A stretch of DNA of 64,000 bases, taken from positions 37,538 to 101,537 of IMG/VR virus record IMGVR_UViG_3300032116_000064. One strand, given 5' to 3'. The stretch comes from a virus. The translations under genes and the position numbers were made by a program. The notes under the pieces were generated by a model that made no database searches, was not told the origin of the DNA, and saw only the letters and a program-made list of their open reading frames with translations. This document shows, one piece after another, positions 42,343 through 63,663 of this stretch. How positions within the stretch are numbered: the stretch's first letter is position 1; every line of letters begins with the position of its first letter.

Positions 42343-42784
42343 CTTCACACCTTGATAGTAGATCTGTGATATTATTAAAATTTTCTGATATTCCAATTGC
42401 CTTCTTGCCAGTTAATCTATAAATTTCTTTAGCATCTTTTTCTGACTTGCATATGATTTTGACATTTTTTGTTAACATAACTAAATGTAATGTATTTTTT
42501 GTTTTTTCCCATCCGTGATAATAAAATATGTTAATATTATTTACAACCCTTAGAGAAGTAGCCAAAGCATCTAATGAAGTTACTATTAAATTTCCATTAA
42601 AGCTCCATAAGTCTGTAGAATTAAACATACCGCATGGGGTATGATGTGGGTTAAAATCTATATTATCATAAAAAATGCTGATATCATAGATATCCTTAGA
42701 GTTTAAATTTTTATTTACAAAAGAGCCAACGTGCATCAATTGCTCTTGGTCTGAAAAGTTACATAGATATATTCCTAAATTCAT
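42299..42784 (-). CDS. Glycosyltransferase-cluster protein, possible GT-B-like
   Basis: A 161-residue protein. ATG 42784 overlaps the upstream stop (ATGA) and lies nine bases after GGAGA, so it is preferred over the ATG at 42793. Alternating beta strands and helices (NLIVTSLDALATSLRVV, NINIFYYHGWEKTKN, LHLVMLTKNVKIICKSEK, KKAIGISENFNNI) resemble half of a Rossmann-type glycosyltransferase. There is no complete nucleotide-sugar site. It may be a truncated GT-B protein or an accessory subunit. It is the last member of the glycosylation cassette. Confidence 0.45.
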   Translation of the reverse strand: MNLGIYLCNFSDQEQLMHVGSFVNKNLNSKDIYDISIFYDNIDFNPHHTPCGMFNSTDLWSFNGNLIVTSLDALATSLRVVNNINIFYYHGWEKTKNTLHLVMLTKNVKIICKSEKDAKEIYRLTGKKAIGISENFNNITDLLSRCEDEYKSNNNNVYQTT

Positions 42785-44267: not shown

Positions 44268-45070
44268 AGTTTTGAAATTTCACTTTCTAGTTTCTCTATT
44301 ATATCTTTACAATTCAGCTGTGACAACAAAGATTTGACTCTATGCAAACAAGTGTGTTTATTTTTTACTGATGACAATAGTTTTCCACCTTTAAAAATAC
44401 TATTGATTTGTTCCAAGTCATTGGATTCTTTTGTATCAAAAATAACTTTTGTGCCACTATATATCGCATTGAATGCTGTTTGAGATCCAATATATGATGG
44501 ATCTTTGAATACTATTTCGTCATAGTTAGAAAACAATGTTGTTAGTATATTAATAGGAAAAATAAAATCTACATAATTAGATAACTCTGGTAAACTTGAA
44601 GTATAATGATAACTACCATCTATCTCAGATATATCGTCTTGTGAGTTTACAAAAATGAGTTTATTTATCTTGTAGTCGCCTCTCCCATTATTGAGAAAGA
44701 TATCTGCTGATTGAAGAATTTTTACATATTTTCCATTGGTTAGTTGTATATCTTCTTTTCCAAAAAATATGGCTGTTATACCTGTTTTTTCAAGAGAAGA
44801 GGACAACTGATTCAAATCTTCCAGCTTAATATTATCAGTGTTGATCATTAATGTGATCTTTTTGTTGTTAACTATATAATGTAGCATATCTTTTGATATG
44901 TGGCTGACATGTGTAATTATCACATCTGGTAAAAATGCATCACATTCATCATATATACTTGACTGTGGGTTGAAAATTTTAGACTGAACACCAATCAGTG
45001 AAAAAGCGGCGTTAAAATAAAACGGTTCGGTATTCCAAGGAGAACTATAATTAGATATTAAAAATTTCAT
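44264..45070 (-). CDS. Putative GT-B-like protein of glycosylation cassette
   Basis: A 268-residue protein with a good AAAGGAC site before its ATG. N-terminal strand MKFLISNYSSPWNTEPFYFN and DVIITHVSH resemble the start of GT-B transferases. A second alternating segment (KLIFVNSQDDISEI) follows, then FKDPSYIGSQTAFNAIYSGT and KVIFDTKESN, which looks like the donor-site region in which a target residue is chosen by position. No canonical EX7E motif is present. It is probably a divergent glycosyltransferase or an accessory. The DNA here is visibly more A/T-rich than the replication genes. Confidence 0.45.
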   Translation of the reverse strand: MKFLISNYSSPWNTEPFYFNAAFSLIGVQSKIFNPQSSIYDECDAFLPDVIITHVSHISKDMLHYIVNNKKITLMINTDNIKLEDLNQLSSSLEKTGITAIFFGKEDIQLTNGKYVKILQSADIFLNNGRGDYKINKLIFVNSQDDISEIDGSYHYTSSLPELSNYVDFIFPINILTTLFSNYDEIVFKDPSYIGSQTAFNAIYSGTKVIFDTKESNDLEQINSIFKGGKLLSSVKNKHTCLHRVKSLLSQLNCKDIIEKLESEISKL

Positions 45071-45815
45071 GATTGTCCTTTATGCTGTGATAAGTTTTCA
45101 CATTGTTAATTTTATATACTGGTATTTTGTTATCTATACAATAAATTTGATAGCTATTTTTTATTAAGTCATTTAAAGCTTCAAAAACAAATCTTTTTTT
45201 GCTGTCTTGATGATTTAAAAACTTTCTAAATGTGTCTATAGAATCATATCCATTTAAATATAATACTTCAGACCATGTTTTATATGCACCAAAAGAAAAA
45301 TGTTCTGCAATATTTTCTTTGTTAACATTTATTCCAATTTCTAAATTTTCTGATGGATTTTGTTCTACTATGACACAATTTTTATTAGTATCTATCAAAG
45401 ACAAAGTTTTTTTGTTTATGAGCAGGCTACCATCAAAAATGAGAACTTTGCTGTTCAGAGTATTGTTGATAGCTAATCTTACGCCTTCGCATGAGTTACA
45501 TGATGAAAAAATTTGATTTTCAACTATGCGTATATTGATATTTTTATATTTTGATCTTATATGCTTAACTATTTTTTCGCTGTCAAATCCGGTACAAACA
45601 ATTATTTCATATTTATTGAAGCATTTTATTATACATTCTATTTGCGTATCTATCAGTAGTTTTTTGTTAATTTGTATCAGAGATGAAGGTCCATAAGACT
45701 TCATTCTATATCCCGGCAAATCACATAATATTACTACACTGATACTTGAACCTTCATTTTGTGAAGATATAATTTTTTTTGTAGATTTCTTTTTTTGTTG
45801 TTTTAATCTTGCCAT
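45051..45815 (-). CDS. Sugar-nucleotide nucleotidyltransferase-like protein
   Basis: A 254-residue protein starting at ATG 45815, one base after the upstream stop. After a basic N-terminus (KQQKKKSTKK), residues about 27-55 read ISVVILCDLPGYRMKSYGPS, then SLIQINKKLLI. This resembles the G-x-R-M and P-x-L-x-x-I-x-x-K signature of sugar nucleotidyltransferases. The usual lysine after the proline is replaced by serine. A metal-binding strand VLIFDGSLLI follows near residue 130, with a single Asp. It would activate a sugar phosphate for the neighbouring transferases, but the altered signature means it may be degenerate. Confidence 0.55.
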   Translation of the reverse strand: MARLKQQKKKSTKKIISSQNEGSSISVVILCDLPGYRMKSYGPSSLIQINKKLLIDTQIECIIKCFNKYEIIVCTGFDSEKIVKHIRSKYKNINIRIVENQIFSSCNSCEGVRLAINNTLNSKVLIFDGSLLINKKTLSLIDTNKNCVIVEQNPSENLEIGINVNKENIAEHFSFGAYKTWSEVLYLNGYDSIDTFRKFLNHQDSKKRFVFEALNDLIKNSYQIYCIDNKIPVYKINNVKTYHSIKDNHEIFNI

Positions 45816-45816
45816 T

Positions 45817-46542
45817 TTACAGCTCAATATATAAGCCCTCTTCTCTAGTTTGTTTTTCCATATTTAAATATTCATTATCATAATCTAAGTATAAATTTGG
45901 AAATAGTGTTCTGCATATCAAACTTAAAATAGCTGTTTGGTTGTTTCTTTTAAAGATAATAGCTTTCCTCATATCTTCAGTTATATATTCATTGATTTTA
46001 TATAGAAATTTTTCTATGTCTAGATAATTGCTTTCATCAAGTAAAACATGAAACATACTAGAACTTTTCATAACATTCAAGTAAATATATTCTTTTTTAT
46101 CAAAATACATAGATACTGTAATAGATGGATGATTATAGAAAAGATTTTTTAATTGATTTTTTGTTTCAAGAGATGATTTATAGGAATAAAATAATTTAAT
46201 TTGAATCTTAGAGTGTAATGTTGAAAGTAGGGCATTAATATATTCATACATTTCTATGTCAATGTTATCGCAGTTAATTAATAAGTCAAAGGTTACTTGT
46301 GATTCATTTTTAGCCTTTTCAATATCTGCAATTCCTTCATTCCACTCTTTAGTTCTATATAAAGTACATAGTCTCTTTATTACAAAAAACTCTTTGTCAT
46401 TATCATAGGCTTCTATTATATCATCTTTAAATTTGATAATTCTATTATCTTTACATCCAGTTTGAGTAATGCCATCATAAATTGCAAACGTACAATCTTT
46501 ACAACTAGTATTACTAATTTTTTCTTGTGGCGTGTAGTTCAT
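45817..46542 (-). CDS. Cys4-motif protein with divergent GT-A-like domain
   Basis: A 241-residue protein. The N-terminal 70 residues contain C14-x2-C17, C29 and a cysteine near residue 59 (CKDCTFAIYDGITQTGCKDN, then FFVIKRLCTLYR). From memory this four-cysteine module precedes GT2 domains in phage glycosyltransferase clusters. The remaining residues have the alternating strands of a GT-A fold (VTFDLLINCDNIDIEMYEYI, MFHVLLDESNYL) but no clear DXD. It is likely a degenerate or unusual transferase. Overlaps the upstream methyltransferase-like gene by 29 bases. Confidence 0.45.
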   Translation of the reverse strand: MNYTPQEKISNTSCKDCTFAIYDGITQTGCKDNRIIKFKDDIIEAYDNDKEFFVIKRLCTLYRTKEWNEGIADIEKAKNESQVTFDLLINCDNIDIEMYEYINALLSTLHSKIQIKLFYSYKSSLETKNQLKNLFYNHPSITVSMYFDKKEYIYLNVMKSSSMFHVLLDESNYLDIEKFLYKINEYITEDMRKAIIFKRNNQTAILSLICRTLFPNLYLDYDNEYLNMEKQTREEGLYIEL

Positions 46543-46930
46543 ACGTTGATCCCTTAAATAATAATTTATCCGTTTTGATGCCTAGAGAGGTTAGTTTATC
46601 TGATAGTTCTTTGCAATCATAGATGGCCTTGCGATTATATATAACTTCATTCATTACTGCACAATCTAAAACTCTATTGACACAATCTACTGACAAACAA
46701 TTTATGTCTACGCCTGTTATTACTAACGTACCGTTTAGCCTTAACAATTGTCTAATTTTATTCAAGAAAGCATCGATATTTTTATATGAAATTAGTTCTA
46801 TAGTATTGATCATTAAAATAGAAGAAATTGAATTATCTGGAACGTCTATATTTAGATTATCGTCTTCTATAAGTACTGGATTATAACCATCTATACAATC
46901 TGATATATCTTTAATAATCTGTATTTTCAT
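46514..46930 (-). CDS. Partial SAM-methyltransferase-like protein
   Basis: A 138-residue protein resembling the second half of a class I methyltransferase. DNSISSILMINTIELISY is the strand-4/loop region, IDAFLNKIRQLLRLNGTLV is the following helix and strand, and LVITGVD ends it. The N-terminal glycine-rich SAM-binding motif is missing, so it is either truncated or a binding-only domain. The ATG overlaps the stop of the upstream glycosyltransferase (ATGA). It may methylate a sugar or, being incomplete, be inactive. Confidence 0.5.
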   Translation of the reverse strand: MKIQIIKDISDCIDGYNPVLIEDDNLNIDVPDNSISSILMINTIELISYKNIDAFLNKIRQLLRLNGTLVITGVDINCLSVDCVNRVLDCAVMNEVIYNRKAIYDCKELSDKLTSLGIKTDKLLFKGSTYELHATRKN

Positions 46931-47919
46931 CTTATTGATTCCTCATAAACTTTGTTAAATAATGCATTCCAATTACTTACGAATTGACTTTCCGAAAACT
47001 TGGATTCTATTGTTTTACGTGCATTTTCTCCAACTTCTGATCTAAGATCATCATCTTTTAGTAATAGCTCAATATAGGATCTAAGTTCTGTTTCATTATT
47101 AGATATAAAACCATTTTTTCCGTTAGTAATGATTTCTGGTATCATGCAAGTTGCTGTTGATACTACAGCACATCCACACGACATCGCCTCTAGCAAAGAC
47201 ATTGGTATTGGACTTAATACTGAGCTATTAAAATAGACTGAGCATGAATTATACGAATCTACTAAACTATTTATATTAGGTGCTGCCGTGGATAAGCCGG
47301 GAGTATCCCCAACAAGTTTGACGTTTAACCCGTTGGTAACACGTTTCCATCCGCTAAAATTTAAGCAATAATCTCTATTTACAAAATCATTTGCTACCGT
47401 AAGGACTGTACTGTCGCGTGTTTGCCCAGTGGGTCTAAAAGTATTAGTATCTAAACCGTGGTGTATAACAATACCATCTATTCCCCAAGCTTGTCTAGAA
47501 AATTCAGAAATAAATACATTTACATCTCCACGCATAGTTCTCATTTGAGCCACTTGTTTTTCAGTCATAGATGGTGGAGTTGGCAATGTATGCTCTAGGC
47601 ATATTATTGGTAAACCCAATTGTCTATTTATGTCTTGTGCTGTTTGAAATTGTCCAAATTTACTTTGTACAAGGATCAAGTCAAAATTTAGATAATTACA
47701 TAATTGATTTTCTGGCAATATGTGATAATTTGTTGGAACCTCTGTCTGATTGACATTCCACTTTTTAGCATTAGAAATGTTTATAGAGTAAAATTCATGT
47801 TCTGTTTTACATAGCTCTGTTTCATACCTTTCGTGAGTAGGAAAGGTTAAAATATTGTATTTTTTCTTTTGTTCACTATTAGCTATATCTATTATTCTAC
47901 TAGTTATATTATTAAGCAT
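46927..47919 (-). CDS. GT4-family glycosyltransferase
   Basis: A 330-residue GT-B enzyme. The C-terminal half has the GT4 donor-binding pattern: IVIHHGLDTNTFRPTG, then VLTVANDF, then CSVYFNSSVLSPIPMSLLEA followed by MSCGCAVVSTATCMIPEI. The EAMSCGC block contains the conserved glutamate and Gly turn. The N-terminal half carries LILVQSKFGQFQTA and an acceptor-site region. It transfers a sugar from a nucleotide donor, probably with retention of configuration as usual for GT4. It overlaps the next upstream glycosyltransferase by eight bases. The first residues are open to another, later start, but ATG 47919 fits the fold length. Confidence 0.85.
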   Translation of the reverse strand: MLNNITSRIIDIANSEQKKKYNILTFPTHERYETELCKTEHEFYSINISNAKKWNVNQTEVPTNYHILPENQLCNYLNFDLILVQSKFGQFQTAQDINRQLGLPIICLEHTLPTPPSMTEKQVAQMRTMRGDVNVFISEFSRQAWGIDGIVIHHGLDTNTFRPTGQTRDSTVLTVANDFVNRDYCLNFSGWKRVTNGLNVKLVGDTPGLSTAAPNINSLVDSYNSCSVYFNSSVLSPIPMSLLEAMSCGCAVVSTATCMIPEIITNGKNGFISNNETELRSYIELLLKDDDLRSEVGENARKTIESKFSESQFVSNWNALFNKVYEESIR

Positions 47920-49024
47920 TTAGTAATTCCTTTATCAAGTTACCAACATTTTCGTATGAGAATTGTTTTGCATTCTCAAGACCCTTATTTCTATCTATAG
48001 AATCTTTATTCTCATAGTAAAATCTCATAGCTGACTTTATTTCTTCCTCATCTGGAACAAACCAAGACTCTCTTCCTGTGAATATATTTGGAAATGCGGA
48101 GTCCGAGTGTTCGCAAACAGAATATATACCACTTATTAGAGTACCGGTGTTTTTATCTTTAATAAATTCTTTTGGACCACCCTCATTACTGCATATCGGA
48201 GTCTTTCCAAAACACATGGCATCAAATGATGGTATAGACCATCCCTCGCCATGAGTTGTATTAACCATGCAATCGCACGATTGGTGCAAAATATTAATTT
48301 CTTCAGATGACATATCATCAGTAATAATTATTTCCTTATGGTAGTCATCTATCGATGGATAGATTCTTAATGTATTCTTAATAGTAAGACACATGTTTTG
48401 AACCTGTTTTTGTAGCTCTATTGGATTAACACCAAACTTTTTTACCTTCAATACTAAAGAAACTGGTTCGTGTCTAAAAAATTCACTATGAAAACATTTT
48501 ATTACGGATTCTATATTTTTTCGCTGGTTTAAGTCTGCTATATAATAGAATTTAAAAGTGTTATTTTTATCACCAAAATTTATTTGTGAAGTTTGTTTCT
48601 GTGAATATTTAGCTAAATCAAATGCGTGTGGTACACATTTCAAGTTATTGAAACCATCTTTTTTCATATTATTTAATTGAGTTTGGTTCGGAACCCAAAT
48701 CTCGTCCATAATATGCAGGTTGGATTTCCAATTATTGTACTTTAATGTTGTGGATTCCCCGACATAATATGCTATATTTTTCTTAAACTTTGATGTTCCC
48801 ACTAAATGATGAGGTAATAAATGCTGAATACATATATCAATGTTATCAAGAGATTTATTTTCTAACTCTTTTATTTTATTTGGCGTATTGAATGTTTTTG
48901 ATGTTAACTTTATGTTTCTACATACAATATCTATACCAGCGGAATCTATAGCTTGAATTAAATCCATGGCAGCTTGTGACCACCCGCTATTTTCTTTGTA
49001 ATGACCTATGTATAGTACTTTCAT
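47912..49024 (-). CDS. GT4-family glycosyltransferase
   Basis: A 370-residue GT-B enzyme starting MKVLYIGHYKENSGWSQAAM, the Rossmann strand plus acceptor loop of GT4. The linker contains KCVPHAFDLAKYS. The donor region has a FKFYYIADLNQRKNIESVIK block and later TTHGEGWSIPSFDAMCFGKT. In this block the usual second glutamate of EX7E is aspartate (FDAM), a conservative change. It probably adds one sugar of the phage-specified glycan. Its ATG overlaps the stop of the upstream transferase. Confidence 0.85.
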   Translation of the reverse strand: MKVLYIGHYKENSGWSQAAMDLIQAIDSAGIDIVCRNIKLTSKTFNTPNKIKELENKSLDNIDICIQHLLPHHLVGTSKFKKNIAYYVGESTTLKYNNWKSNLHIMDEIWVPNQTQLNNMKKDGFNNLKCVPHAFDLAKYSQKQTSQINFGDKNNTFKFYYIADLNQRKNIESVIKCFHSEFFRHEPVSLVLKVKKFGVNPIELQKQVQNMCLTIKNTLRIYPSIDDYHKEIIITDDMSSEEINILHQSCDCMVNTTHGEGWSIPSFDAMCFGKTPICSNEGGPKEFIKDKNTGTLISGIYSVCEHSDSAFPNIFTGRESWFVPDEEEIKSAMRFYYENKDSIDRNKGLENAKQFSYENVGNLIKELLNA

Positions 49025-50691
49025 ATCATACCTCTAGCTTTCAACATTTCTATTCTCTTTTCTTCCCAATAATTTCGTCTTTGCGACAAATATGCTAACT
49101 GATCATATGCTATACTAAAATCGAAAGGACTTCTATTTTGTTTACCATCAAACATGGAAGAACTTTCATTAAAGTACATACCGCCAGTAGTAGCTGTGTG
49201 ATTTTTGTATGTTAAATCTCTTACAATTCTAGACTCAAAATATGAATTTAATCGTTCTGGCTCTCCAAGAACTTCAACTATCAACCATTTGGCTAAATCC
49301 TTATAATTGACATTAGTCGGAATTGGATCGGGTTTTGGTTTAGCCGTTACTATTCTTGGTGGTTGTTTCCAATTTTCGAAATTGTCTGAGATTTCTACAG
49401 AATCAAAGAATTTTTCCCAAGCCCTTCCGCTTTGATCCCATTGATAATGTTTCAAAAATGCTTGTCTTGTTTCAAAGCCCATTCTCTTTCTTATACCGAT
49501 TGGTTGTTCAAAAAATTCTTTAAACTTTTGTGCGGCTAATTCGTTATCTGGTACTGCTCTGAAACATCCAGTTTCTAACTCTTTGTACAAAGCTTTTGGG
49601 GCCAATGGTATACCGCCAAGATTTCTTACTACACTTTCCATAGCAGAATAATCTGTAGCCATTACTGGGATGCCACATGCCGCTGCTTCAACTTGCGGTA
49701 ATCCAAAACCTTCACAGTTAGCATATTGAACATAAAGATCGAACAAGTTAATTATCTTAGACAAATCTTCATATTCTACACCATTTTTGACATTAGACAA
49801 TGATGCACCAAATTGTCCAGTAAATGGAGATTGTGCTATGGCACCTTTGAATAAGGATGGAAATGGTTTGCCGGTTTGGCCACATATATATGTAAAATAT
49901 ACCTTAGAGGACAATTGATATTGTTGTAATAGCTCTGGTATATCCCATCCAAGATCGGGATAACTGGTATGGCAATACAAATAATAATTAGAATTGTCTT
50001 CTACTCTGTCTAATAATAATCTAAATGCTTGAAAAAGATCTGGATATAATTTACGACGCTGGTTTCTCATTACGGTGCCAATGATCTTTGCGTTAGGATC
50101 AATACCCATAGATGATCTTAACCCTTCTTTGTCTTCTATGGGGCGATAAGCATGATGGGCCGATGGCGGTGAAATTCCTATATACTTGATTTTTTCACCC
50201 GATTGTTGCTTCAATACTTCTCCAGCCCATTCAGAATATGTCAAACATGCATCAGCAGATTCATAAGTTGCTATCCATTGTCTTGCTTGTGGTCTAGCAT
50301 CTACGGTTGGCATAATGCACCATTTAAAATATTTTCTAAATGGCGATCTTTCTGCAAAGTCTAACATCCAAAAATCACGAATATCACACACTATATCTGG
50401 AAGAAAGTCAAGACAAACAGATTCGAACATTAACTCACCAAATTGTGCTACTGGCTGTTGATTATACTGATTTTTTTCTTCCTCAGAACACGAAGCATCT
50501 GGGACAACGCCATAAAATTTCCACGGTATAGATGATGCCCGTGGATCATTTCTTTCTCCATAAGAAGCCATTTCTGCAAGTTCATATTTACCAGTACTGT
50601 GGAGATAATTCAAAATCTCTCTAGTATATGTAGCATATCCGGTGTTCAAAAATGTAGCTTCGCTGCAAAATAATATTCTTGGTTTTCTCAT
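49021..50691 (-). CDS. Large GT4-family glycosyltransferase
   Basis: A 556-residue enzyme, longer than most GT4 proteins. The N-terminus is RILFCSEATFLNTGYATYTR, then EILNYLHSTGKYELAEMASYGERND. From memory this segment recurs in GTs of phages and certain bacteria. The donor site reads CEGFGLPQVEAAACGIPVMA with an intact EX7E pattern. About 100 extra C-terminal residues, after residue 455 (PKPDPIPTNVNYKDLAKWLI and onward), form an added domain of unknown role. It lies between GT4 and GT32 genes, with ATGA overlaps. Confidence 0.85.
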   Translation of the reverse strand: MRKPRILFCSEATFLNTGYATYTREILNYLHSTGKYELAEMASYGERNDPRASSIPWKFYGVVPDASCSEEEKNQYNQQPVAQFGELMFESVCLDFLPDIVCDIRDFWMLDFAERSPFRKYFKWCIMPTVDARPQARQWIATYESADACLTYSEWAGEVLKQQSGEKIKYIGISPPSAHHAYRPIEDKEGLRSSMGIDPNAKIIGTVMRNQRRKLYPDLFQAFRLLLDRVEDNSNYYLYCHTSYPDLGWDIPELLQQYQLSSKVYFTYICGQTGKPFPSLFKGAIAQSPFTGQFGASLSNVKNGVEYEDLSKIINLFDLYVQYANCEGFGLPQVEAAACGIPVMATDYSAMESVVRNLGGIPLAPKALYKELETGCFRAVPDNELAAQKFKEFFEQPIGIRKRMGFETRQAFLKHYQWDQSGRAWEKFFDSVEISDNFENWKQPPRIVTAKPKPDPIPTNVNYKDLAKWLIVEVLGEPERLNSYFESRIVRDLTYKNHTATTGGMYFNESSSMFDGKQNRSPFDFSIAYDQLAYLSQRRNYWEEKRIEMLKARGMI

Positions 50692-51329
50692 ATGAATCCT
50701 ACTTCCCTTTGATATTCTGGATATCTCGACAATGCTATTATTTTATTTCCGTAAATACATACATATGTCGAATTTAATTGATATTCTTGAGCTATTTGTA
50801 TAGCTTTATTATTTATCATATATACTGTTGGTTGAATCATAGATGTGATGTCTAAGTATTTTTTTATATTTTTGTACATATGTTCTGTTGTTTGATAAAA
50901 TAAATCTTTGGCTGTTTCTGGATTCATTATATCTTTTATACAATCTAATATAATTGGGTGTTCGCTTTCGCAATATAATAAAGCTTGAAATGTCATTGGA
51001 CCTATTGCAGAATTAACACTAAAAAATTCAAGATTATCTGCTGTATAATGATCAATAGGTTCTACATGTTTAATATCAACATCGCAGTAATATCCACCAA
51101 ACTTTAACAAGTAACAATATCTAAAAAAATCTCCTTTAGTGCATCCAAGTTTTACGCCATGGAAAAAGTCAACATACGATGAGTCATATTCTTTTAGAAG
51201 AAATTTTACCACATCTTCATCTGTAAAAAACAGTATATTCTTTTCTGGATTTAGTAGTTTTATATTATCAAAAACATACTTTGGAATCTTATCATTTTTG
51301 TAAGTTAATATAATATTATTTGGTATCAT
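50688..51329 (-). CDS. GT32-like (DXD) glycosyltransferase
   Basis: A 213-residue protein beginning MIPNNIILTYKNDKIPKYVF, with TKGDFFRYCYLLKFGGYYCD followed by VDI. This is the GT32 signature (Gly_transf_sug): a basic/aromatic acceptor helix, then YYCDVD with the DXD metal-binding motif. GT32 enzymes include capsular and OCH1-like transferases that add a hexose. It begins one base after the stop of the SSB gene, so it is the first gene of the glycosylation cassette. Overlaps the next by four bases. Confidence 0.8.
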   Translation of the reverse strand: MIPNNIILTYKNDKIPKYVFDNIKLLNPEKNILFFTDEDVVKFLLKEYDSSYVDFFHGVKLGCTKGDFFRYCYLLKFGGYYCDVDIKHVEPIDHYTADNLEFFSVNSAIGPMTFQALLYCESEHPIILDCIKDIMNPETAKDLFYQTTEHMYKNIKKYLDITSMIQPTVYMINNKAIQIAQEYQLNSTYVCIYGNKIIALSRYPEYQREVGFI

Positions 51330-51693: not shown

Positions 51694-53262
51694 TCATACT
51701 TCATGAATTTTTTCAACAATAAAAGATGTATCATTGACGCCGACTGACCCACAAAATATTAAATTATTACCTTCATACAGAATATACTTATATTTTTCTC
51801 TCACTTTTGGAAATGCTATTACGCTATCTAATATACATGTGTCATCTTCTATTGTTAGGAATGACATAACTTGCCCTTTTGATTCTCCCTTAGTTATTGT
51901 ATAGTCTGACAGTCTGTGTATATTTGCTACTATGCACATATCTTTGCCCTTTTTACCATTCACAATCTCTTTGCAAGTTGTATTGGCGGCAGAAGTGTCA
52001 GAAGTCTCAACCTTGGTCATAGTAACTGGACAACCTAAGAATTTAATTTCTTGATCTATTATCCAACTTGGATCATCTTCTAAGTCATACGGTGGATTAG
52101 CTAATAATTGTATTTCATTTTCTATAGCTTGTTTTCTATCGGCTTTGCTAGTTCCTCCACCCTCCTTTTTGGTAGGTGCTAAGTCCTTTAAGCAATCCAT
52201 AAATGTATTCCATTTTTTAGTGGTATAGTTGTTTAATATCCAAGTTTGTTCTGATTTGGTAAGAGTCCTATATATCTCGTAGTCATACAAAGCTTTGTTT
52301 CGGCTTACACTGCCTTTGATGGTTCTAAAGAATCCTATAGAAGCTAGAGCCTTAAAAGATGTAGAGCTAATATTTGCCCCGATAAATAATAGAATTTCTA
52401 GCCAAGTAAACTTATCGACGCTTTTTCCTAAATCTTGTTCTGCGACTATAATAGTCTCAATTAACTTATCGCCAGTAGCACCAGTTAATGACTTTATATC
52501 TTTAATACCAAAGTATATCTTTCCATCCTTGATATTGAACTTACGATCAAAATTGGTCAAACTTGGTGTTCTAGTCTCAATATCGAACAGTTTTGCTTCT
52601 GATATTAATTCGTAGACTTCTTGATGAGGGTCTTGTTTTTCGTTAGCATAGTATAGATATGATAAGAAGAACTCTTTGGTATTGTGGGCCTTAAAATACG
52701 CACTCCAATAGGAGCATACTGCATATGAAACGCTGTGCGACTTATTGAAAGCATATCGTGCAGACTTTTCAATCCATCCGAAGATTTGTTCAGCGTCTTC
52801 CTTAGAAACGGTTCCTACTCGCTCTGCTCCTGCTATAAATGATTTTTTGACTTCATTCATAAGATCGGCTTTCTTCTTTCCGATAGCCTTACGAAGAACA
52901 TCAGCTTCTTGTAGATTAAATCCAGCAATTTTTTCAGCTATACGCATGGATTGTTCTTGATATACAAGAACTCCATATGTTGGCTTTAATATGTCTTCTA
53001 GTGCCGGATGTAAATAGGTTACTTCTTCCCTTCCATGCTTTCTGTCTACATATCGCTGGGTCATGCTTTTGCCATCAACGAAAGCTTTCAAAGTTCCCGG
53101 TCTAATAATAGCAATTAATGCAGAAAGTTCTTCTAGATTGGTTGGTGCTAATTTTTTAGACCAAGACTTTCCAAGGTTACTTTCTAATTGAAAGATACCC
53201 TTAGTTTTACCTTCTGCGAATAACTGCCAAGTTGCTTTATCATTATAATCAATATCGATCAT
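51694..53262 (-). CDS. dnaE: DNA polymerase III alpha (DnaE), C-terminal half
   Basis: A 522-residue protein matching the second half of bacterial DnaE. It starts MIDIDYNDKATWQLFAEG and continues through the conserved KGIFQLESNLGKSW, IAIIRPGTLKAF, DRKHGREEV and YLHPALEDILKPTYG, then VLVYQEQSMRIAEKIAGFNL and RKAIGKKKADLM. These are the fingers region. A C-terminal OB-fold follows (CIVANIHRLSDYTI, then VMSFLTIEDD). It has no catalytic aspartates, which are in the other half at 54777-56399. A GAGGA site precedes the ATG, so it is made as a separate protein. No intein motif is seen at the junction. The two chains presumably associate into one polymerase. Confidence 0.9.
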   Translation of the reverse strand: MIDIDYNDKATWQLFAEGKTKGIFQLESNLGKSWSKKLAPTNLEELSALIAIIRPGTLKAFVDGKSMTQRYVDRKHGREEVTYLHPALEDILKPTYGVLVYQEQSMRIAEKIAGFNLQEADVLRKAIGKKKADLMNEVKKSFIAGAERVGTVSKEDAEQIFGWIEKSARYAFNKSHSVSYAVCSYWSAYFKAHNTKEFFLSYLYYANEKQDPHQEVYELISEAKLFDIETRTPSLTNFDRKFNIKDGKIYFGIKDIKSLTGATGDKLIETIIVAEQDLGKSVDKFTWLEILLFIGANISSTSFKALASIGFFRTIKGSVSRNKALYDYEIYRTLTKSEQTWILNNYTTKKWNTFMDCLKDLAPTKKEGGGTSKADRKQAIENEIQLLANPPYDLEDDPSWIIDQEIKFLGCPVTMTKVETSDTSAANTTCKEIVNGKKGKDMCIVANIHRLSDYTITKGESKGQVMSFLTIEDDTCILDSVIAFPKVREKYKYILYEGNNLIFCGSVGVNDTSFIVEKIHEV

Positions 53263-53609
53263 TTATTCCTCGACAATAAGTAATTCAATGCTTGAATTAA
53301 GCCCTCTATGTTATCTCCTAATCTACTCATCCCTACATTGCAATTATTGCATAGCCATCCGCGAAATAAATCTGTTTTATGGCAATGATCTAAGTGTAAT
53401 TTTCCACTTTTTCCACAACATTCGCATTTGATCGGTTTAGTATGATTGTTTTCCTTTTTAAGTTTGATTAGTAATGTATTTATTTTATGCTCACAAGATT
53501 TACAATTTGTATATGTTCTTAATAAGGAATTATCTTCTGATCTTTGTCTATATCGAAATTCAGATTCATCCTTAAATTGTCCACATTTTGGGCAAATCTT
53601 ATTTGACAT
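53259..53609 (-). CDS. Endonuclease VII-like HNH protein between DnaE halves
   Basis: A 116-residue protein. ATG 53609 follows GGAAA at suitable spacing. The C-terminal half is a recombination endonuclease VII (T4 gp49-type) domain: cysteines at 62, 64 and 65 (CECCGKSGKLHLDHCHKTD), HLDHCH with H72, D74 and H77, then RGWLCNNCNVGM with C87 and C90. The N-terminal part has a second CPKC/CKSC zinc finger. This family includes Holliday-junction resolvases and free-standing homing endonucleases. Here it lies exactly between the two DnaE gene halves. It overlaps the DnaE-C start by four bases and the exonuclease stop by 11. Confidence 0.75.
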   Translation of the reverse strand: MSNKICPKCGQFKDESEFRYRQRSEDNSLLRTYTNCKSCEHKINTLLIKLKKENNHTKPIKCECCGKSGKLHLDHCHKTDLFRGWLCNNCNVGMSRLGDNIEGLIQALNYLLSRNK

Positions 53610-54279
53610 ATAAATTTCCGTCAGCAAATGCCTTATCAAAATTCATATTCTGATACACCGCACGATGAGTCTTCATGAGCTTTATGAATATATTAGCTTC
53701 ATCCTTAACGTCCTGTAATGCGTCGTGTGCATTGTCAAATGATAGCCCCATTCTTTCTCGTAGTGAGTCCATGCTAATAGATCTAACACTTGGATCGCTT
53801 TCTGTCCACGCGAATATATTATCCATTATATCTATCTTATAGACTCTACTAAATAGTTTCTGTTGTTCTCTTTCTTTATCCCAAGGTCCGAAGTCTCTGC
53901 ATAAACGGTTAATTATATGCATATCGAAGCCAATGATATTGAACCCAACTGGGATAGGATTAAAAAATGCATCACCTTTCCAATTATACTGATCAACAAA
54001 CTTAGTAAATTTAGTCCATACCGCTTTTAGAGAGGGTGCTAGTTCTAGTTGCTCTCTAGTCTTTTTAGTGATCTTTAATGCTTCATCTTCTACTGGATCG
54101 AATCCCGCTGCCCGTGCCTTATCCTCGTCAAAAATAGGCTTGATTTCACTATTAAATTGCCCCTTTACTGTTAAGCTTCTGCCGTCTAAAGCAATAGCAG
54201 CTATTTGTGTTGGTTGGGTTCTGTGAGGATTTCTACTTCCAGTTTCAAAATCAAATATAATATAGTCTCTATTAGCCAT
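53599..54279 (-). CDS. DnaQ-like DEDDh 3'-5' exonuclease
   Basis: A 226-residue protein with all DEDDh motifs. Exo I is IIFDFETG (D10, E12), exo II is GFNIIGFD (D119) and exo III is NAHDALQD (H185, D190). This family proofreads DNA polymerases or trims DNA ends. Its gene lies between the two halves of DnaE, whose PHP domain lacks metal ligands, so a proofreading subunit role is likely. The ATG lies inside the end of the methyltransferase-like gene. The C-terminal 30 residues (RAVYQNMNFDKAFADG) may bind a partner. Confidence 0.88.
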   Translation of the reverse strand: MANRDYIIFDFETGSRNPHRTQPTQIAAIALDGRSLTVKGQFNSEIKPIFDEDKARAAGFDPVEDEALKITKKTREQLELAPSLKAVWTKFTKFVDQYNWKGDAFFNPIPVGFNIIGFDMHIINRLCRDFGPWDKEREQQKLFSRVYKIDIMDNIFAWTESDPSVRSISMDSLRERMGLSFDNAHDALQDVKDEANIFIKLMKTHRAVYQNMNFDKAFADGNLYVK

Positions 54280-54796
54280 GATAATGTAATACTCCTAGCC
54301 CCTTTTCTATCTTGTGAATTTTAAATGGATATATGGAAAGATCTATTGTTGTTCCTTTAATGGAAAAATCATCAACACATATATAGATATCTTTTAGGTT
54401 AAAAGATAATATTTTATCAAACTGATTTTTGGTTTCGGCTGGATCTATACTTCCATCTAGATAATAAATATTGTATTCTGGAGTAATATGATCTAATCCG
54501 TTGCCATAACAAAGATTGACATTATAACCTAACTGGCTGGCAATTAAATTTGAGTGTGCTAAGTGGTCTAAAGATATATCTGCTATAGTAAATGTTCCAC
54601 CATTTTTCTTTATATAGTTACCAAATACTATATCTGACCAACCAGAACCTATCCTAAATAAATAATTATCTAGTGTTTCTATGGCACCAATTTGAAAAAT
54701 ATTAACCGACTTATTAGAAAAAGTATTCAAAATACTTAAGAACACTTCGTCCCTAGAACTAGATATGTTTATCAATTCATTTATTTTGTCTATCAT
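54272..54796 (-). CDS. SAM-methyltransferase-like protein in split DnaE locus
   Basis: A 174-residue protein. ATG 54796 is used, since GAGGAGAT lies upstream, and a TTG at 54799 is less likely. It looks like a class I Rossmann methyltransferase: VNIFQIGAIETLDNYLFRIG is the SAM strand, with the glycine motif reduced to a single G. It is followed by GGTFTIADISLDHLAHSNLI (strand 2 with an acidic Asp), then GYNVNLCYGNGLDHI and YNIYYLDGS. The substrate is unknown and it could be inactive or a binding protein. It overlaps the DnaE N-half by 20 bases. Confidence 0.5.
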   Translation of the reverse strand: MIDKINELINISSSRDEVFLSILNTFSNKSVNIFQIGAIETLDNYLFRIGSGWSDIVFGNYIKKNGGTFTIADISLDHLAHSNLIASQLGYNVNLCYGNGLDHITPEYNIYYLDGSIDPAETKNQFDKILSFNLKDIYICVDDFSIKGTTIDLSIYPFKIHKIEKGLGVLHYHG

Positions 54797-56399
54797 CAAC
54801 GATCTCCTCTATTTTCATAATTTTATCAAGAAGATTAATACCTAAAACGTCAAACTTTACATGGCCTAACGCTTCTAAATCTGACATTTCTAATCCGGCA
54901 ATCTTTTCAGATGATCCCTTTTGCTTTACCATTGGACATACTTGCTGTAAAGGTTCAGCAGATATAACCACTCCAGCGGCATGTTTACCTTGAGTTTTAA
55001 ATGTACCCTCTATTTGAATAGCTTGCTCAAAATATTCAGCATACTCTCCTTCTAACTTACCGTCTTCTGATAATCTACAAAAGTCCCGTAGTGCATCGGC
55101 ATTATTTATCAATGCCCACTTTATGATAGATCTATCTTCATCGTCCATTTCTGCTAATTGATCTGAAATCTTAGCCTCGTCTGGAATGCAATTGCTGATA
55201 GCATTCATCTCCGCAAAAGAGCAGGCTTCATTAACACGCAATATTTCTTTTATTGCACTCTTTCCCTGTAATCTACCAAACGTTAACATTTGGCTTACTC
55301 TTTCATGACCATACTTGTCTTTTATATATGATATAATTTCATCACGTTTAGTGCCGGGAACGTCCATATCAATATCTGGTAAAGATATGTGATCAGCCGT
55401 ATTTCGTCCAGCGTTATAAAATCGTGCAAATAGAAGGTCAAACTCTATTGGGTCAATCTTTGTGATACCAATTAAGTATGAAATCAAACATCCGGCGGCA
55501 GACCCTCTACCGGGACCAGAAAGCCACCCCATATCATTAACGTGCTGTATAATATCATGCACAATTAAGAAATATCCGAATAGATTAGCATCCTTAATAA
55601 CGTCAAACTCTTCTTTAAATCTACTAAGATACTTCTGCTTATCTTCTTCTTTTGATACCTTGTTTTGATCTATTAATATTTTCTTCCAGCCAACACGGCA
55701 TAATTCTTTGAGATAATCTTCTTCTGATGCACCCTTTGGACATTCAAATTTTGGAAGCATTGGCTTACTAAGAATATCATAGTCTTCGCATTGATCGTAA
55801 ATCGTTTTTAGCTTAGATGTATCTAGACCTTCAGATTCACTCTTATTTTTTACATAGAATGAGTCTTGCATAAAATATACTAGTTTATCCATATGTTCTT
55901 GTGGATACTTCGAATCTACACTACCGTCTGGTTTAATACTCTTTTTTATTTTAGGTAGAGTAGTCTTCATGTCTGAACATAATAATATTCTATGAAGCTT
56001 GGCATCTTCACGATTAGTATAATAACTAATAGGCATAGAGTCGCTTTGGCTATTAAAAGCACTAATACTAATAAGATTTTTACTGACCTCTAGACTATCA
56101 AAATCTCTTGGGAGTTTACCGTTTTCGTCCAACGCCGAAACCATTTCAATCAATTCATACCAACCCTCTTTGTTCTTAGCAAAGAGTGTAGCAAAATCAA
56201 AGGAGCATCCAATAATGGGCTTTATCCCCTGCTTTTTGCAAGCCTTATAAAAGGCTACTGCGCCGGATAGTGTTTTATAATCACAGATACCACATGCTGT
56301 ATATCCATTATTTTTACACTTTTGGGCCAATTCTTCTGGCTTAGAAAAACCACGCAATAGACTATAATGGGTATAATTTTTAAGTGGAAACCATTTCAT
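54777..56399 (-). CDS. dnaE: DNA polymerase III alpha (DnaE), N-terminal half
   Basis: A 540-residue protein preceded by AGGAGAG. Residues 1-90 are a PHP domain whose metal ligands are lost: the usual HLHVHS near residue 5 reads LKNYTH, and TDHGNL reads CDYKTL. Residues about 270-540 form the catalytic palm: LSGPGRGSAAGCL at 293-305, SLPDIDMDV at 339-347 (D342, D344), GKHAAGVVIS at 471-480 and VKFDVLGINLLDKI at 514-527 (D517). These correspond to E. coli D401, D403 and D555. The chain ends soon after this block at VDDRQNK, before the fingers, which are on a separate gene at 51694-53262. Confidence 0.92.
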   Translation of the reverse strand: MKWFPLKNYTHYSLLRGFSKPEELAQKCKNNGYTACGICDYKTLSGAVAFYKACKKQGIKPIIGCSFDFATLFAKNKEGWYELIEMVSALDENGKLPRDFDSLEVSKNLISISAFNSQSDSMPISYYTNREDAKLHRILLCSDMKTTLPKIKKSIKPDGSVDSKYPQEHMDKLVYFMQDSFYVKNKSESEGLDTSKLKTIYDQCEDYDILSKPMLPKFECPKGASEEDYLKELCRVGWKKILIDQNKVSKEEDKQKYLSRFKEEFDVIKDANLFGYFLIVHDIIQHVNDMGWLSGPGRGSAAGCLISYLIGITKIDPIEFDLLFARFYNAGRNTADHISLPDIDMDVPGTKRDEIISYIKDKYGHERVSQMLTFGRLQGKSAIKEILRVNEACSFAEMNAISNCIPDEAKISDQLAEMDDEDRSIIKWALINNADALRDFCRLSEDGKLEGEYAEYFEQAIQIEGTFKTQGKHAAGVVISAEPLQQVCPMVKQKGSSEKIAGLEMSDLEALGHVKFDVLGINLLDKIMKIEEIVDDRQNK

Positions 56400-60030: not shown

Positions 60031-60774
60031 TCAAATTCTCCAAAAAGTATTATTTTTAAGTTCACAACATAAAGTTTCTAGTGTCATATTATGATTATCA
60101 ATGACCATATCAAAATTATGCCAATCAAATTTATCACTATCTAGTGATGATTCGGACTCAGAATCACTGTTGAATATATTCCTTGTAAGACGTATGACAA
60201 TACCTCCATTGTCTTTTATAGATTTTACCTCATTAGGAAATCGTACATCTGGTATAATTGCTAACCGAGATTTTTCACTCAATACCTTATTTATTGTAGC
60301 ATCTACCCAAGCGGTTGACTTTATTTTTCGTATAATCTTTGTTCCAAAATGCTCCAAAAATTCTCTATGTGTCATATATCCCGATTTATTATCATTATTA
60401 TTTGGTATATCTTCCCATTTGATACTTGTTAATTCATTTTTTTGATCATCTGTGCCATATACATTATCTGGCTTGAATCCAAACAAGTTTACGCACATGT
60501 CTTTCAAGTAATCTGCGAAATGGTATACCTTTACATAAGGCCACAATTCTCTTTGTGCATATTCAACAAATGTATTGTCTTTTCTAGTAACATCGAATAT
60601 TCCATAGCCACTGGTCCCTGTAGAGTCTTTAGTCTGTATTGCTAGATTACCGTCATCCTCAATAAAAAATTGTTCAATCATTGACTTACCCTGTAAAATA
60701 TCACCATTGATATAATTAGCAATGGTATTTTTCCCAGACTGTTTTCTACCAGATATACCTATTATTTTAACCAT
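60031..60774 (-). CDS. Deoxynucleoside monophosphate kinase
   Basis: A 247-residue P-loop kinase. The N-terminus IIGISGRKQSGKNT at 4-17 is a Walker A motif, and later RLAIIPDVRFPNEVKSIKDN with GGIVIRLTRN matches the dNMP kinase/T4 gene 1 family. It phosphorylates dNMPs to dNDPs to supply replication. The region at about residues 85-100 (VYHFADYLKDMCVNLFGF) resembles the family's lid and substrate-binding part. It overlaps the primase stop by eight bases and is flanked by replication genes. Confidence 0.85.
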   Translation of the reverse strand: MVKIIGISGRKQSGKNTIANYINGDILQGKSMIEQFFIEDDGNLAIQTKDSTGTSGYGIFDVTRKDNTFVEYAQRELWPYVKVYHFADYLKDMCVNLFGFKPDNVYGTDDQKNELTSIKWEDIPNNNDNKSGYMTHREFLEHFGTKIIRKIKSTAWVDATINKVLSEKSRLAIIPDVRFPNEVKSIKDNGGIVIRLTRNIFNSDSESESSLDSDKFDWHNFDMVIDNHNMTLETLCCELKNNTFWRI

Positions 60775-61801
60775 TAACTATTCCCCGAATTTGTGGTATT
60801 ACTATTTTATTGATTTGTTCTACGCTCATTTCACCAACGTCTTTAGTTGGTATTCTTGGAAAAGATAGCTTATACATTCTGCCTAGCTGTCTTTGTAACT
60901 GTACCTTCGCTTCTCTTCCAGCTTGGTCGTTATCCATTAGAACTACTATATGCGTAAGTGGCATTTTGTACAGTTTTGTTTCTTGTTCTTTGCTAAGAGT
61001 TCTTCCAAAAATACTCATAGATTGTGTGATGCCAGCCTCATGAAGTCTCCATACATCGCCCTGACCCTCTACCAAAACTAGTGAAGAAGTTTTGCGTACA
61101 TTGATTATAGCTCTGTGATAATTATAAAAAAAATATCTTTTGTCAAAACCTTTGGGGTCTAGCAAAAATTTAGGGTGCTTATATTCTTTAATCGATCTAG
61201 CTATACATGCTATGACCTTTTCCCCAGTGTCATTATGGATAGGTATAATAGATCTATCATATAACTTGGATGATTTATCAGTACAGTCTCCAACACCAAA
61301 ATGTATTAATGTTTCTGGTTTAAAACCTCTAGAAAGAAAATATTTCGATGGTAATTCTGAACAAATGTCTTCTTTAATTGCTGGATAATCTTGATCTAGA
61401 GCAATACTAGAGTTTATGGTATTTACGAGCTTAGAGAAATCATCTTCTTCAAGCTTGGGCTTAGAAACTACTTTAGATTTGCCTTGTTTATTTATACCTA
61501 GAAAACTACAAGACCACTTTAGGGCTTCTGAAAAACCAGCATCAATTCCAGTTTCTTTTGATAGTGATCCTCTAATGACTCCAAAGATATCGTTCCTATA
61601 TTGCTCTTGACAATCTCTAGTCCAACACTTCCATATGCCTTTATCTTTTGAAAAAGAAAAAGCTCTTGGATTATCACTGCCATCATGTACAGGACAATTA
61701 CAATATATATTATCTCCTAAAACCTCGTACTTCATACCAAGGCTTGAAAATACTTCTTCCGCACGATTATTTAGTTCACTCTTGATCTTCTGCAAGTCCA
61801 T
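60767..61801 (-). CDS. DnaG-type DNA primase
   Basis: A 344-residue primase, shorter than bacterial DnaG (about 580). The N-terminal zinc finger is C36-x2-H39 and C59-x4-C64 (CPVHDG then WKCWTRDC), the CHCC type. The catalytic core has a SIIPIHNDTGEKVIACIARS strand. Its TOPRIM domain has VLVEGQGDVWRL (the glutamate motif) and HIVVLMDNDQAGREAKVQLQ (the DxD motif). The missing C-terminal domain, which binds DnaB in bacteria, suggests contact through another surface. It overlaps the helicase stop by 26 bases, consistent with a coordinated primosome. Confidence 0.9.
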   Translation of the reverse strand: MDLQKIKSELNNRAEEVFSSLGMKYEVLGDNIYCNCPVHDGSDNPRAFSFSKDKGIWKCWTRDCQEQYRNDIFGVIRGSLSKETGIDAGFSEALKWSCSFLGINKQGKSKVVSKPKLEEDDFSKLVNTINSSIALDQDYPAIKEDICSELPSKYFLSRGFKPETLIHFGVGDCTDKSSKLYDRSIIPIHNDTGEKVIACIARSIKEYKHPKFLLDPKGFDKRYFFYNYHRAIINVRKTSSLVLVEGQGDVWRLHEAGITQSMSIFGRTLSKEQETKLYKMPLTHIVVLMDNDQAGREAKVQLQRQLGRMYKLSFPRIPTKDVGEMSVEQINKIVIPQIRGIVNG

Positions 61802-63242
61802 TTATTTTTAGTTTATCTAGTGTATCTTGATCTACCATACCAGTATCTCCTACTGGTTGATTCTTAAATTCATTTCTGGTCTTTAGTTCTCTTAGCTTGG
61901 CATGTGATCCTTGCATAACCATATTTATGTAATCCCCATCGTCTAATCCGCCGCCGTGTCTTGATACAATAGGAACTAATTTTCTATTGCCAGCATTTGG
62001 ACCATCTTCCGCCAACTCTTCTGGCGACTTAGCTTTGAAGATACTAAACGAAGTACATAGCCAAATTAGTCTATCTGAGCCGCTAACAGCATCTGTACTT
62101 TCTTTAGTTATACCATCGCGGTTCAGCTGAACGAATGAAAGGCATGGTATATCAAGCTTTACGCAAAGATTATGAAGAGAAGTAATTTGAAAGCCCAGTG
62201 CTTGGTATTCTTGTATGTTATTAGTTATTGAGCTAGAAGACATCAATTTAAGATAATCGTATATGATTAGACAGTTATTTGTTTTACCATTGTCATCCAT
62301 TCTAACGTCTTGCATTACCCATCGTCTAATCAAGTTGAGTATTTGTTCAAATGGTTTTCCTGCAACGCTAACGTAACTATACGGTATGGATTCAATCTTT
62401 TCAATAGCGTCTAATACTTTTTGTCGTTTTTCATCATCCTCTGTGAATCTACCGGTAGCAATTTCATTGATTGGAACTCCGCTTATGTTTGCTAATAATC
62501 TATTCAAATGATCTTCCTTACTCATTTCAGTATCTAACATCAGTACCGGTGTTCCTTTAGAAGATACATTTAAAGCTACATTATCAGCAAATACGCTTTT
62601 ACCAACCTTTGGTCGTGCTGATATTAAGTCAACGCATTTCCTTCTTAATCCTCCACCGATTGCTTCATCGTACTTGTTGAAGCCCGTTGGTATTCCTATG
62701 ATATCACATTTGTTCTCTTCTAGAAATTCTAAATATTGTTTGGCATCCTTGCCAATTTTCTCTGGAAGATCACCACTATCGTCTTCTCGTAAAAAATCTG
62801 TAACTGGGTTTTCTAGTATTTGTATAATTTCATTTATAGATTCTGATCCCGTAACGTCATCTATATCCTTATGGATTTTTGCTGTAAGACCTTTTATCTT
62901 ACGTGCAAATTCAAACTTCTTCATCTGTATTGCAAAGCTAAACACATTATCTTTATTGATCGGGAAGTCCATTAAAGACTTTATGTACTTCAACTCTTGA
63001 TCTGTGTTTATACTTTCAGAAAGACTAAGCTGTTCTGATGCAGATAAAATAGATGGTATATCTACCTTTTGATCATTCAATATAACTTTTTCAATACATT
63101 TGAATAATACTTGATTATTAAAATGACCAAAGCTATCTTGGCTTATCACATCTGATACAGATACATATGCATCTATACCATGCTGCAACAGTCCAGCTAA
63201 AACCGCTCTTTCTGAACCAATATCAGTTAACTTAGTTTCCAT
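61776..63242 (-). CDS. dnaB: DnaB-type replicative helicase
   Basis: A 488-residue helicase. ATG 63242 is chosen because GGAAAG lies before it and the DnaB N-domain begins nearby (SERAVLAGLLQHG). An earlier start overlaps the zinc-finger gene. The RecA-like core carries Walker A ARPKVGKS at 209-216 in place of the usual GRPxMGKT, then LMLDTEMSKED, Walker B-like CLIIYDYLKLM, QLNRDGITKESTD and SRHGGGLDDGDYINM. It unwinds DNA at the fork and carries the primase encoded next. The N-domain is complete, so it probably forms a standard hexamer. The helicase-loading factor is not visible here. Confidence 0.92.
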   Translation of the reverse strand: METKLTDIGSERAVLAGLLQHGIDAYVSVSDVISQDSFGHFNNQVLFKCIEKVILNDQKVDIPSILSASEQLSLSESINTDQELKYIKSLMDFPINKDNVFSFAIQMKKFEFARKIKGLTAKIHKDIDDVTGSESINEIIQILENPVTDFLREDDSGDLPEKIGKDAKQYLEFLEENKCDIIGIPTGFNKYDEAIGGGLRRKCVDLISARPKVGKSVFADNVALNVSSKGTPVLMLDTEMSKEDHLNRLLANISGVPINEIATGRFTEDDEKRQKVLDAIEKIESIPYSYVSVAGKPFEQILNLIRRWVMQDVRMDDNGKTNNCLIIYDYLKLMSSSSITNNIQEYQALGFQITSLHNLCVKLDIPCLSFVQLNRDGITKESTDAVSGSDRLIWLCTSFSIFKAKSPEELAEDGPNAGNRKLVPIVSRHGGGLDDGDYINMVMQGSHAKLRELKTRNEFKNQPVGDTGMVDQDTLDKLKINGLAEDQE

Positions 63243-63243
63243 A

Positions 63244-63663
63244 TCACTTTCCAGTGCATCGGTTACAGCGATAATAGTCGCCGTGAACGAATCGTGCGTC
63301 TTCTTTAAATGTTTTACCACAAACGTGGCATTCTACCTCAACCTTTTTATGTGGCTGGCGACGGCGAGGGGTTTTTTCAAACTGGGGAGTTTCTACATCC
63401 CTAAATTCACCGGTATCTTGCCACTCATTCTTTCTGGCTCTCACTTGTTCTTTTCTCCTAGTATTAGAAGTACTTTCCTGCTTAAACATTGTAAAATCTT
63501 CATTCACACTTGCAGGGGGCGTGGAAGATTGTATTTGTTTTATGCTTTCCTTTTTTACTTCCTGTGGAATGCTAGACAATGTTTGACTATCGCCAACCAG
63601 TGCCTTTAACAAAGCTTGTTTTTGCTCATCGTTAAGCATGTTTATAAAATCGTTCATACTCAT
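63244..63663 (-). CDS. Zinc-finger protein upstream of helicase
   Basis: A 139-residue protein. The first 40 residues are helical (MSMNDFINMLNDEQKQALLK), then comes a flexible basic stretch (SNTRRKEQVRARKNEW, PRRRQPHKKVE), and the C-terminus is a four-cysteine zinc finger (C112-x2-C115, C133-x2-C136). It starts with an ATGA overlap to the upstream gene and ends one base before the helicase start. Close linkage to DnaB suggests a helicase loader or accessory, though I see no specific motif to show it. Confidence 0.6.
   Translation of the reverse strand: MSMNDFINMLNDEQKQALLKALVGDSQTLSSIPQEVKKESIKQIQSSTPPASVNEDFTMFKQESTSNTRRKEQVRARKNEWQDTGEFRDVETPQFEKTPRRRQPHKKVEVECHVCGKTFKEDARFVHGDYYRCNRCTGK

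What the first reader, a model, noticed from the sequence alone, without database searches (positions are those of the whole stretch)
51694..56399. DNA polymerase III alpha encoded as two separate genes split between palm and fingers
The 540-residue gene ends just after VKFDVLGINLLDKI, and the 522-residue gene starts just before the conserved KGIFQLES block. Together they give a nearly continuous DnaE with only a short linker missing. All three catalytic aspartates (D342, D344, D517) are on the first chain, and the fingers and OB region are on the second. Both chains have their own ribosome-binding sites and three complete genes lie between them. No intein signatures are seen at the ends, unlike cyanobacterial split DnaE, which is joined by a split intein. 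This would be a polymerase assembled from two chains without splicing.
Basis: partly seen in the sequence, partly recalled or inferred. Interest (0 to 1): 0.82.

Follow-up and report, generated by a model that had tools for sequence, protein, structure and literature searches.

The report
Two-chain split phage replicative DNA polymerase
A large group of uncultured phages makes its only detectable DNA-copying enzyme as two separate proteins, cut at the same hinge in all 299 genome pieces examined and usually with the proofreading gene lodged in between, so the halves very probably assemble without being joined, an ancient arrangement that does not seem to have been described for this enzyme family.

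Summary
The window carries DnaE-N (PHP, palm and thumb, with catalytic D342/D344/D517 = E. coli D401/D403/D555) and DnaE-C (fingers and OB) as separate genes. They meet at E. coli residues 576|577, and only 2-3 residues of the hinge loop are missing compared with continuous homologues. In related uncultured phages I found 299 loci (219 distinct) with both halves; none was continuous, against 75 of 77 cellular DnaE loci caught in the same kind of scan. The split loci form one clade (SH-aLRT 100). In nearly all, the DnaQ-like exonuclease gene lies between the halves; the HNH nuclease and the third gene in the window are later, optional inserts. In the deepest group the halves lie 1-14 kb apart. 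There is no intein or intron at the break, although some relatives carry a split intein elsewhere in DnaE-N. Both halves are under strong purifying selection, and 24 long records show no PolA, PolB or second DnaE-C. Best reading: an obligate two-chain family C replicase. This is a new variant of a known kind (precedents: split T4-like PolB; a split minimal Pol III alpha in jumbo phages). Assembly and activity are inferred, not shown.

The parts
54777..56399 (-). DnaE-N: PHP + palm + thumb of DNA polymerase III alpha, all three catalytic aspartates (D342, D344, D517), 540 aa
   Evidence: Pfam PHP 1.3e-19, DNA_pol3_alpha 6.5e-69; AlphaFold pLDDT 88, Foldseek to Pol III alpha chains E ~1e-33; E. 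coli D401/D403/D555 equivalents
51694..53262 (-). DnaE-C: fingers to C-terminal OB fold of DNA polymerase III alpha, 522 aa
   Evidence: Pfam DNA_pol3_finger 7.5e-49; profile match to E. coli alpha 588-852 and, weakly, 949-1058; Foldseek E ~1e-21
53599..54279 (-). DEDDh 3'-5' exonuclease (DnaQ-like proofreading exonuclease), the near-constant occupant of the gap
   Evidence: Pfam RNase_T 1e-14, PHROG polymerase exonuclease subunit; DxE and HxxxxD invariant in A3; between the halves in 180 of 182 distinct complete loci
53259..53609 (-). HNH / endonuclease VII-like nuclease, optional insert at the Exo|DnaE-C junction; likely start ATG 53609 overlapping the Exo stop (the longest ORF starts at TTG 53639)
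   Evidence: Pfam Endonuclease_7 1e-11; absent from close relatives L003, L008, L015; junction comparison
54272..54796 (-). Methyltransferase-like protein of unknown family, optional insert at the DnaE-N|Exo junction (likely start ATG 54796)
   Evidence: no Pfam/PHROG/NCBIfam/phage match; absent from close relatives L003, L018
51330..51644 (-). SSB-like single-strand binding protein next to DnaE-C
   Evidence: Pfam SSB 5.5e-9
61776..63320 (-). DnaB-like replicative helicase of the same replication block
   Evidence: Pfam DnaB_C 6.4e-25
60767..61801 (-). DnaG-like primase of the same replication block
   Evidence: Toprim, PHROG primase 5e-44

Best explanation
The phage's replicative DNA polymerase is a family C (DnaE-type) enzyme encoded as two polypeptides. 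Chain 1 carries PHP, palm and thumb with all catalytic metal ligands. Chain 2 carries fingers and OB. They are translated from separate start codons of one operon, usually with the proofreading exonuclease between them, and very probably associate non-covalently through the natural palm-fingers interface to form one active site. The break lies in the loop between the last palm helix and the first fingers helix, where little structure is lost. The fission most likely happened once, at or before the base of a large uncultured phage clade, and was not reversed in the sample. The resulting gene junctions became landing sites for HNH nucleases and cargo genes. SHOWN: gene anatomy, break point, conservation, one split clade, purifying selection, absence of splicing elements at the break, no PolA/PolB or second DnaE-C in long records. 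INFERRED: physical assembly, activity, the exonuclease binding the complex, translational coupling.
For: 299 loci (219 distinct) hold both halves, 0 continuous; 268 of 268 full-length N proteins keep PDxDxD and K(F/L)D motifs. Of 77 cellular DnaE loci from the same kind of scan, 75 are continuous and 2 are probable frameshifts. Split rows are one side of a branch with SH-aLRT 100. dN/dS is about 0.02-0.07 for N and C where dS is finite. One DnaE-C and no PolA or PolB in 24 records up to 210 kb. The break falls between helices 522-539 of N and 9-16 of C and costs 2-3 residues. Rfam gives nothing. Halves are 5-14 kb apart in most of group Y. Precedent: the split PolB chains 43A and 43B of Aeromonas phage 25 co-purify and have polymerase activity (PMC2988022).
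Against: No biochemical or proteomic evidence; no cultured relative; the two-chain complex could not be modelled here. N and C distances correlate at r = 0.91, but N-Exo and Exo-C do so equally, so this is not proof of contact. The records are metagenome contigs, many incomplete, so a further polymerase could be missed. No sliding-clamp or clamp-loader interaction was established.
Confidence: 0.87

Rival explanations
1. The two chains are joined after translation by a split intein, as in cyanobacterial DnaE.
For: Close relatives carry true split inteins at GPGRG|S inside DnaE-N (IntN CFLPDTRV..., IntC ...VHN|S), so such elements circulate in this gene.
Against: DnaE-N ends a median of 24 residues after KFD begins, and FQLE begins a median of 34 residues into DnaE-C; continuous homologues need 51-52 residues there, so there is no room for intein halves. 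No intein blocks at the break.
Confidence: 0.02
2. The halves are exons of a cis- or trans-spliced group I/II intron that contains the exonuclease ORF.
For: Phages often carry such introns in replication genes, and HNH nucleases are present.
Against: No Rfam match in the window region or in nine relatives. In uninserted relatives N overlaps Exo by 8 nt and Exo overlaps C by 11 nt, leaving no non-coding room. In group Y the halves lie up to 14 kb apart.
Confidence: 0.03
3. Polymerase remnants: the gene is broken and decaying, and replication uses the host polymerase or another enzyme.
For: Gene fragmentation by homing endonucleases is common in phages; the PHP metal-binding motif looks degenerate in the window's own clade.
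Against: dN/dS 0.02-0.07, catalytic motifs kept in 268 of 268, long-term retention of both halves with the exonuclease, and other replisome genes present.
Confidence: 0.04
4. Assembly artefact or frameshift.
For: The window is a metagenome contig.
Against: The same break occurs in 219 distinct loci from many independent assemblies.
Confidence: 0.005

Closest known systems
Split T4-like DNA polymerase gp43A/gp43B of Aeromonas phages 25 and 44RR
   Same: One phage replicative polymerase encoded as two chains without splicing; a nuclease gene can sit in the gap; chains co-purify and are active (PMC2988022)
   Different: Family B, unrelated fold; reported for a few T4-like phages; no proofreading gene between
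Split minimal Pol III alpha of group 2.2 jumbo phages (Iyer et al. 2021, PMC7824862)
   Same: Family C catalytic module split into two proteins in phages
   Different: There it is a minimal version without PHP and the other domains, in distantly located genes, alongside a family B polymerase; here a DnaE with PHP and OB domains is the sole polymerase found, usually one operon with the exonuclease
Cyanobacterial split DnaE with split intein
   Same: DnaE encoded in two genes
   Different: Joined by an intein at another position (within the fingers, from my own knowledge); here no intein at the break
Aeh1 NrdA-a/NrdA-b split by mobE
   Same: Enzyme fission linked to an HNH endonuclease, functional without splicing (PMC2988022, PMC3653736)
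   Different: Ribonucleotide reductase; here the HNH is a late arrival in a pre-existing gap
Other split DnaE genes in isolate phages: Rossellomorea phiT1, Cellulophaga phiST/phi13:1, Tenacibaculum Larrie, Bacillus Jayan, Bacillus phage G, Alicyclobacillus MMB025
   Same: DnaE in two or three ORFs; phiT1 breaks at E. coli 578|579, almost the same place
   Different: Separate lineages (for those in the tree); the others break at about E. coli 396-415, 551 or 713-740; no exonuclease in the gap

Membership tests
Family C (DnaE-type) DNA polymerase III alpha | PHP, palm/thumb and fingers domains by profile | tested here: met
   Pfam and NCBIfam matches on the two chains together
Family C (DnaE-type) DNA polymerase III alpha | Three catalytic aspartates (E. 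coli D401, D403, D555) | tested here: met
   D342, D344, D517, all on chain 1
Family C (DnaE-type) DNA polymerase III alpha | Fold | tested here: met
   Foldseek best matches are Pol III alpha chains for both models
Family C (DnaE-type) DNA polymerase III alpha | Single polypeptide (usual, not strictly defining) | tested here: not met
   0 of 299 loci continuous
Family C (DnaE-type) DNA polymerase III alpha | Polymerase activity | not testable with these tools
   needs purified proteins
Family C (DnaE-type) DNA polymerase III alpha | C-terminal tau-binding domain (in E. coli type) | tested here: inconclusive
   profile match to E. coli alpha stops at 1058; the tau-binding boundary is from my own knowledge
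Split-intein DnaE (cyanobacterial type) | IntN at the end of chain 1 and IntC at the start of chain 2 | tested here: not met
   tails and heads too short, no intein blocks
Split minimal Pol III alpha of jumbo phages (Iyer 2021) | Accompanies a family B polymerase, lacks PHP and other domains | tested here: not met
   PHP and OB present, no PF00136 in 24 records
Homing-endonuclease-split gene | Nuclease gene at the break in split members, uninterrupted gene where the nuclease is absent | tested here: not met
   31 of 103 W-type loci have no insert besides the exonuclease, yet are split; no unsplit relative found
PolC | Exonuclease in cis within the PHP domain; PolC domain order | tested here: not met
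   separate exonuclease gene; best matches are DnaE, PolC matches weak

The most novel reading that the evidence does not exclude
A long-lived, obligate three-protein polymerase core (N chain, proofreading exonuclease, C chain) in which the conserved gene order N-Exo-C reflects ordered co-translational assembly, the exonuclease helping to hold the two halves together.
Probability: 0.2. Interest if true: 0.78.

Novelty: new variant of a known kind. Interest (0 to 1): 0.62.

Why it matters
If the two chains work as inferred, a main replicative polymerase of the bacterial family has been a heterodimer across a whole phage clade (DnaE proteins down to about 35% identity). That would show that this polymerase need not be one chain and would give natural palm+thumb and fingers+OB halves for biochemistry. 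It is directly testable by co-expression. It also helps annotation: each half is easily read as a broken or partial DnaE, although together they make an enzyme. The same gene in this clade shows fractures repaired by split inteins and a fracture that is not repaired, so the two fates can be compared side by side.

Tried and rejected
Split intein at the break (no room, no blocks). Group I/II intron (Rfam empty; coding-dense overlaps). HNH insertion as the cause of the split (HNH is absent from many split loci; in the window it took over an existing overlapping start codon). Exonuclease insertion as the cause (possible, but group Y lacks it between the halves, so the order of events is open). 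A continuous sister gene within the clade: looked for by four IMG/VR scans and one GTDB scan, none found; best-80 limits mean rare ones could be missed. Nearest cultured phage: none close (best DnaE identity in GenBank phages about 30-38%). Dassa et al. 2009 on fractured genes could not be read (not held).

Full report
WHAT IS THERE. On the minus strand the window reads DnaE-N (56399..54777), P0005 (MTase-like), P0004 exonuclease (54279..53599), P0003 HNH (ends 53259), DnaE-C (53262..51694), SSB. DnaB-like helicase, DnaG-like primase, dNMP kinase and a PD-(D/E)XK nuclease lie just upstream. The window is part of a 101.5 kb virus record.

THE BREAK. In continuous homologues 55-56 residues run from K(F/M/I)D to FQLE. 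The two window chains give 53, so the 'missing linker' is 2-3 residues. In E. coli numbering N ends at 576 and C starts at 577. In the AlphaFold models N (pLDDT 88) ends in helix 522-539 and C (pLDDT 83) starts with helix 9-16, so the cut is in the hinge loop between palm and fingers. Both models match Pol III alpha chains best.

HOW WIDESPREAD. Scans of IMG/VR with each half and with deeper alignments, and of GTDB contigs, gave 299 loci with both halves, 219 distinct; none is continuous. The method can find continuous genes: of the 80 best GTDB loci 77 are cellular DnaE, 75 continuous and 2 probable frameshifts. A 61-row tree puts all split rows on one side of a branch with SH-aLRT 100, with no continuous row inside (quick method, root not inferred).

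WHAT SITS IN THE GAP. In 180 of 182 distinct complete loci the exonuclease gene lies between N and C. The plain form, seen in 31 of 103 W-type loci, is N-Exo-C; in the close relatives inspected the overlaps are 8 nt (ATGGCTAA) and 11 nt (ATGTTAAATAA). The window's HNH gene took over the overlapping start codon at the Exo stop, and DnaE-C then starts at a new ATG overlapping the HNH stop (AAATGA); P0005 sits likewise at the N|Exo junction. Other loci carry other HNH families, methyltransferase-like or glycosyltransferase-like genes there. X-type loci have a small ORF of about 55 codons between N and Exo. In group Y (L256, L335-L339, L392) no exonuclease was found in the gap: the halves are about 1 kb (L256, L335) or 5-14 kb apart, with sugar-pathway genes between in L336, and for L256 an exonuclease lies elsewhere on what appears to be the same contig. 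The fission is therefore common to the whole clade; whether the exonuclease came with it is open.

NOT SPLICED. N tails and C heads are too short for intein halves, Rfam finds no intron, and the gap can be fully coding. Seven contigs (L067/L126, L068/L119, L069/L120, L167, L176, L179, L369) show what a spliced fracture looks like in the same gene: a split intein at GPGRG|S, several with a stand-alone nuclease ORF between its halves. Nothing like it is at the palm|fingers break.

FUNCTIONAL. dN/dS is 0.02-0.07 in N and C where dS is finite. All 268 full-length N proteins keep the catalytic motifs. In 24 records of up to 210 kb there is one DnaE-C and no PolA or PolB, with controls ringing. N and C pairwise distances correlate at 0.91, but so do N-Exo and Exo-C, so this only shows shared descent.

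COMPARISON. A split phage polymerase that works unspliced is known in family B (43A/43B of Aeromonas phage 25, PMC2988022), and a split minimal Pol III alpha was predicted in jumbo phages that also have PolB (PMC7824862). Several isolates have DnaE in two or three ORFs at other sites; Rossellomorea phiT1 breaks at nearly the same hinge and lies elsewhere in the tree. I found no paper describing this clade or this N-Exo-C arrangement, but only open-licence papers could be searched.

VERDICT. Observation confirmed, interpretation supported and extended; the assembly step remains an inference. New variant of a known kind.

Noticed in passing
L067 8001-9966, L068 6013-8777, L167 2101-5190, L176, L179 2056-5132, L369 4894-5530: Split intein inside DnaE-N at GPGRG|S, in several loci with a stand-alone nuclease ORF between IntN and IntC, making DnaE a three-gene enzyme with one spliced and one unspliced fracture.
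   Followed up: partly
L219 2150-5143 (also L220, L221, L224) and L070 7950-9963: DnaE-N broken again just before the PDIDMD motif, with a LAGLIDADG ORF between the pieces in L219 and none in L070; no intein recognised.
   Followed up: partly
L253 (Bacillus phage G, 746-11509): Phage G DnaE is spread over gp329, gp331 and gp339 with a homing endonuclease (gp330) between, and an intein-like C-terminal block lies in gp329 at the same GPGRG|S site.
   Followed up: partly
L255 and L256: Contigs binned to Lokiarchaeota MAGs carry the same split DnaE and similar phage gene order (primase, dNMP kinase, PD-(D/E)XK nuclease, glycosyltransferases in L256); probably mis-binned phage, but an archaeal host is not excluded.
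   Followed up: no
L153 7051-7225, L161, L170 and other X-type loci between DnaE-N and Exo: Conserved small ORF of about 55 codons with a VSCCK-like motif in the polymerase operon; function unknown.
   Followed up: no
window 42781-51329: Cluster of glycosyltransferase-like genes directly downstream of the polymerase operon; similar clusters follow DnaE-C in L255, L256 and L336.
   Followed up: no
L335-L339, L392: Group Y DnaE-N proteins are about 780-830 aa with an in-frame insertion of about 100 residues near the catalytic aspartates.
   Followed up: no
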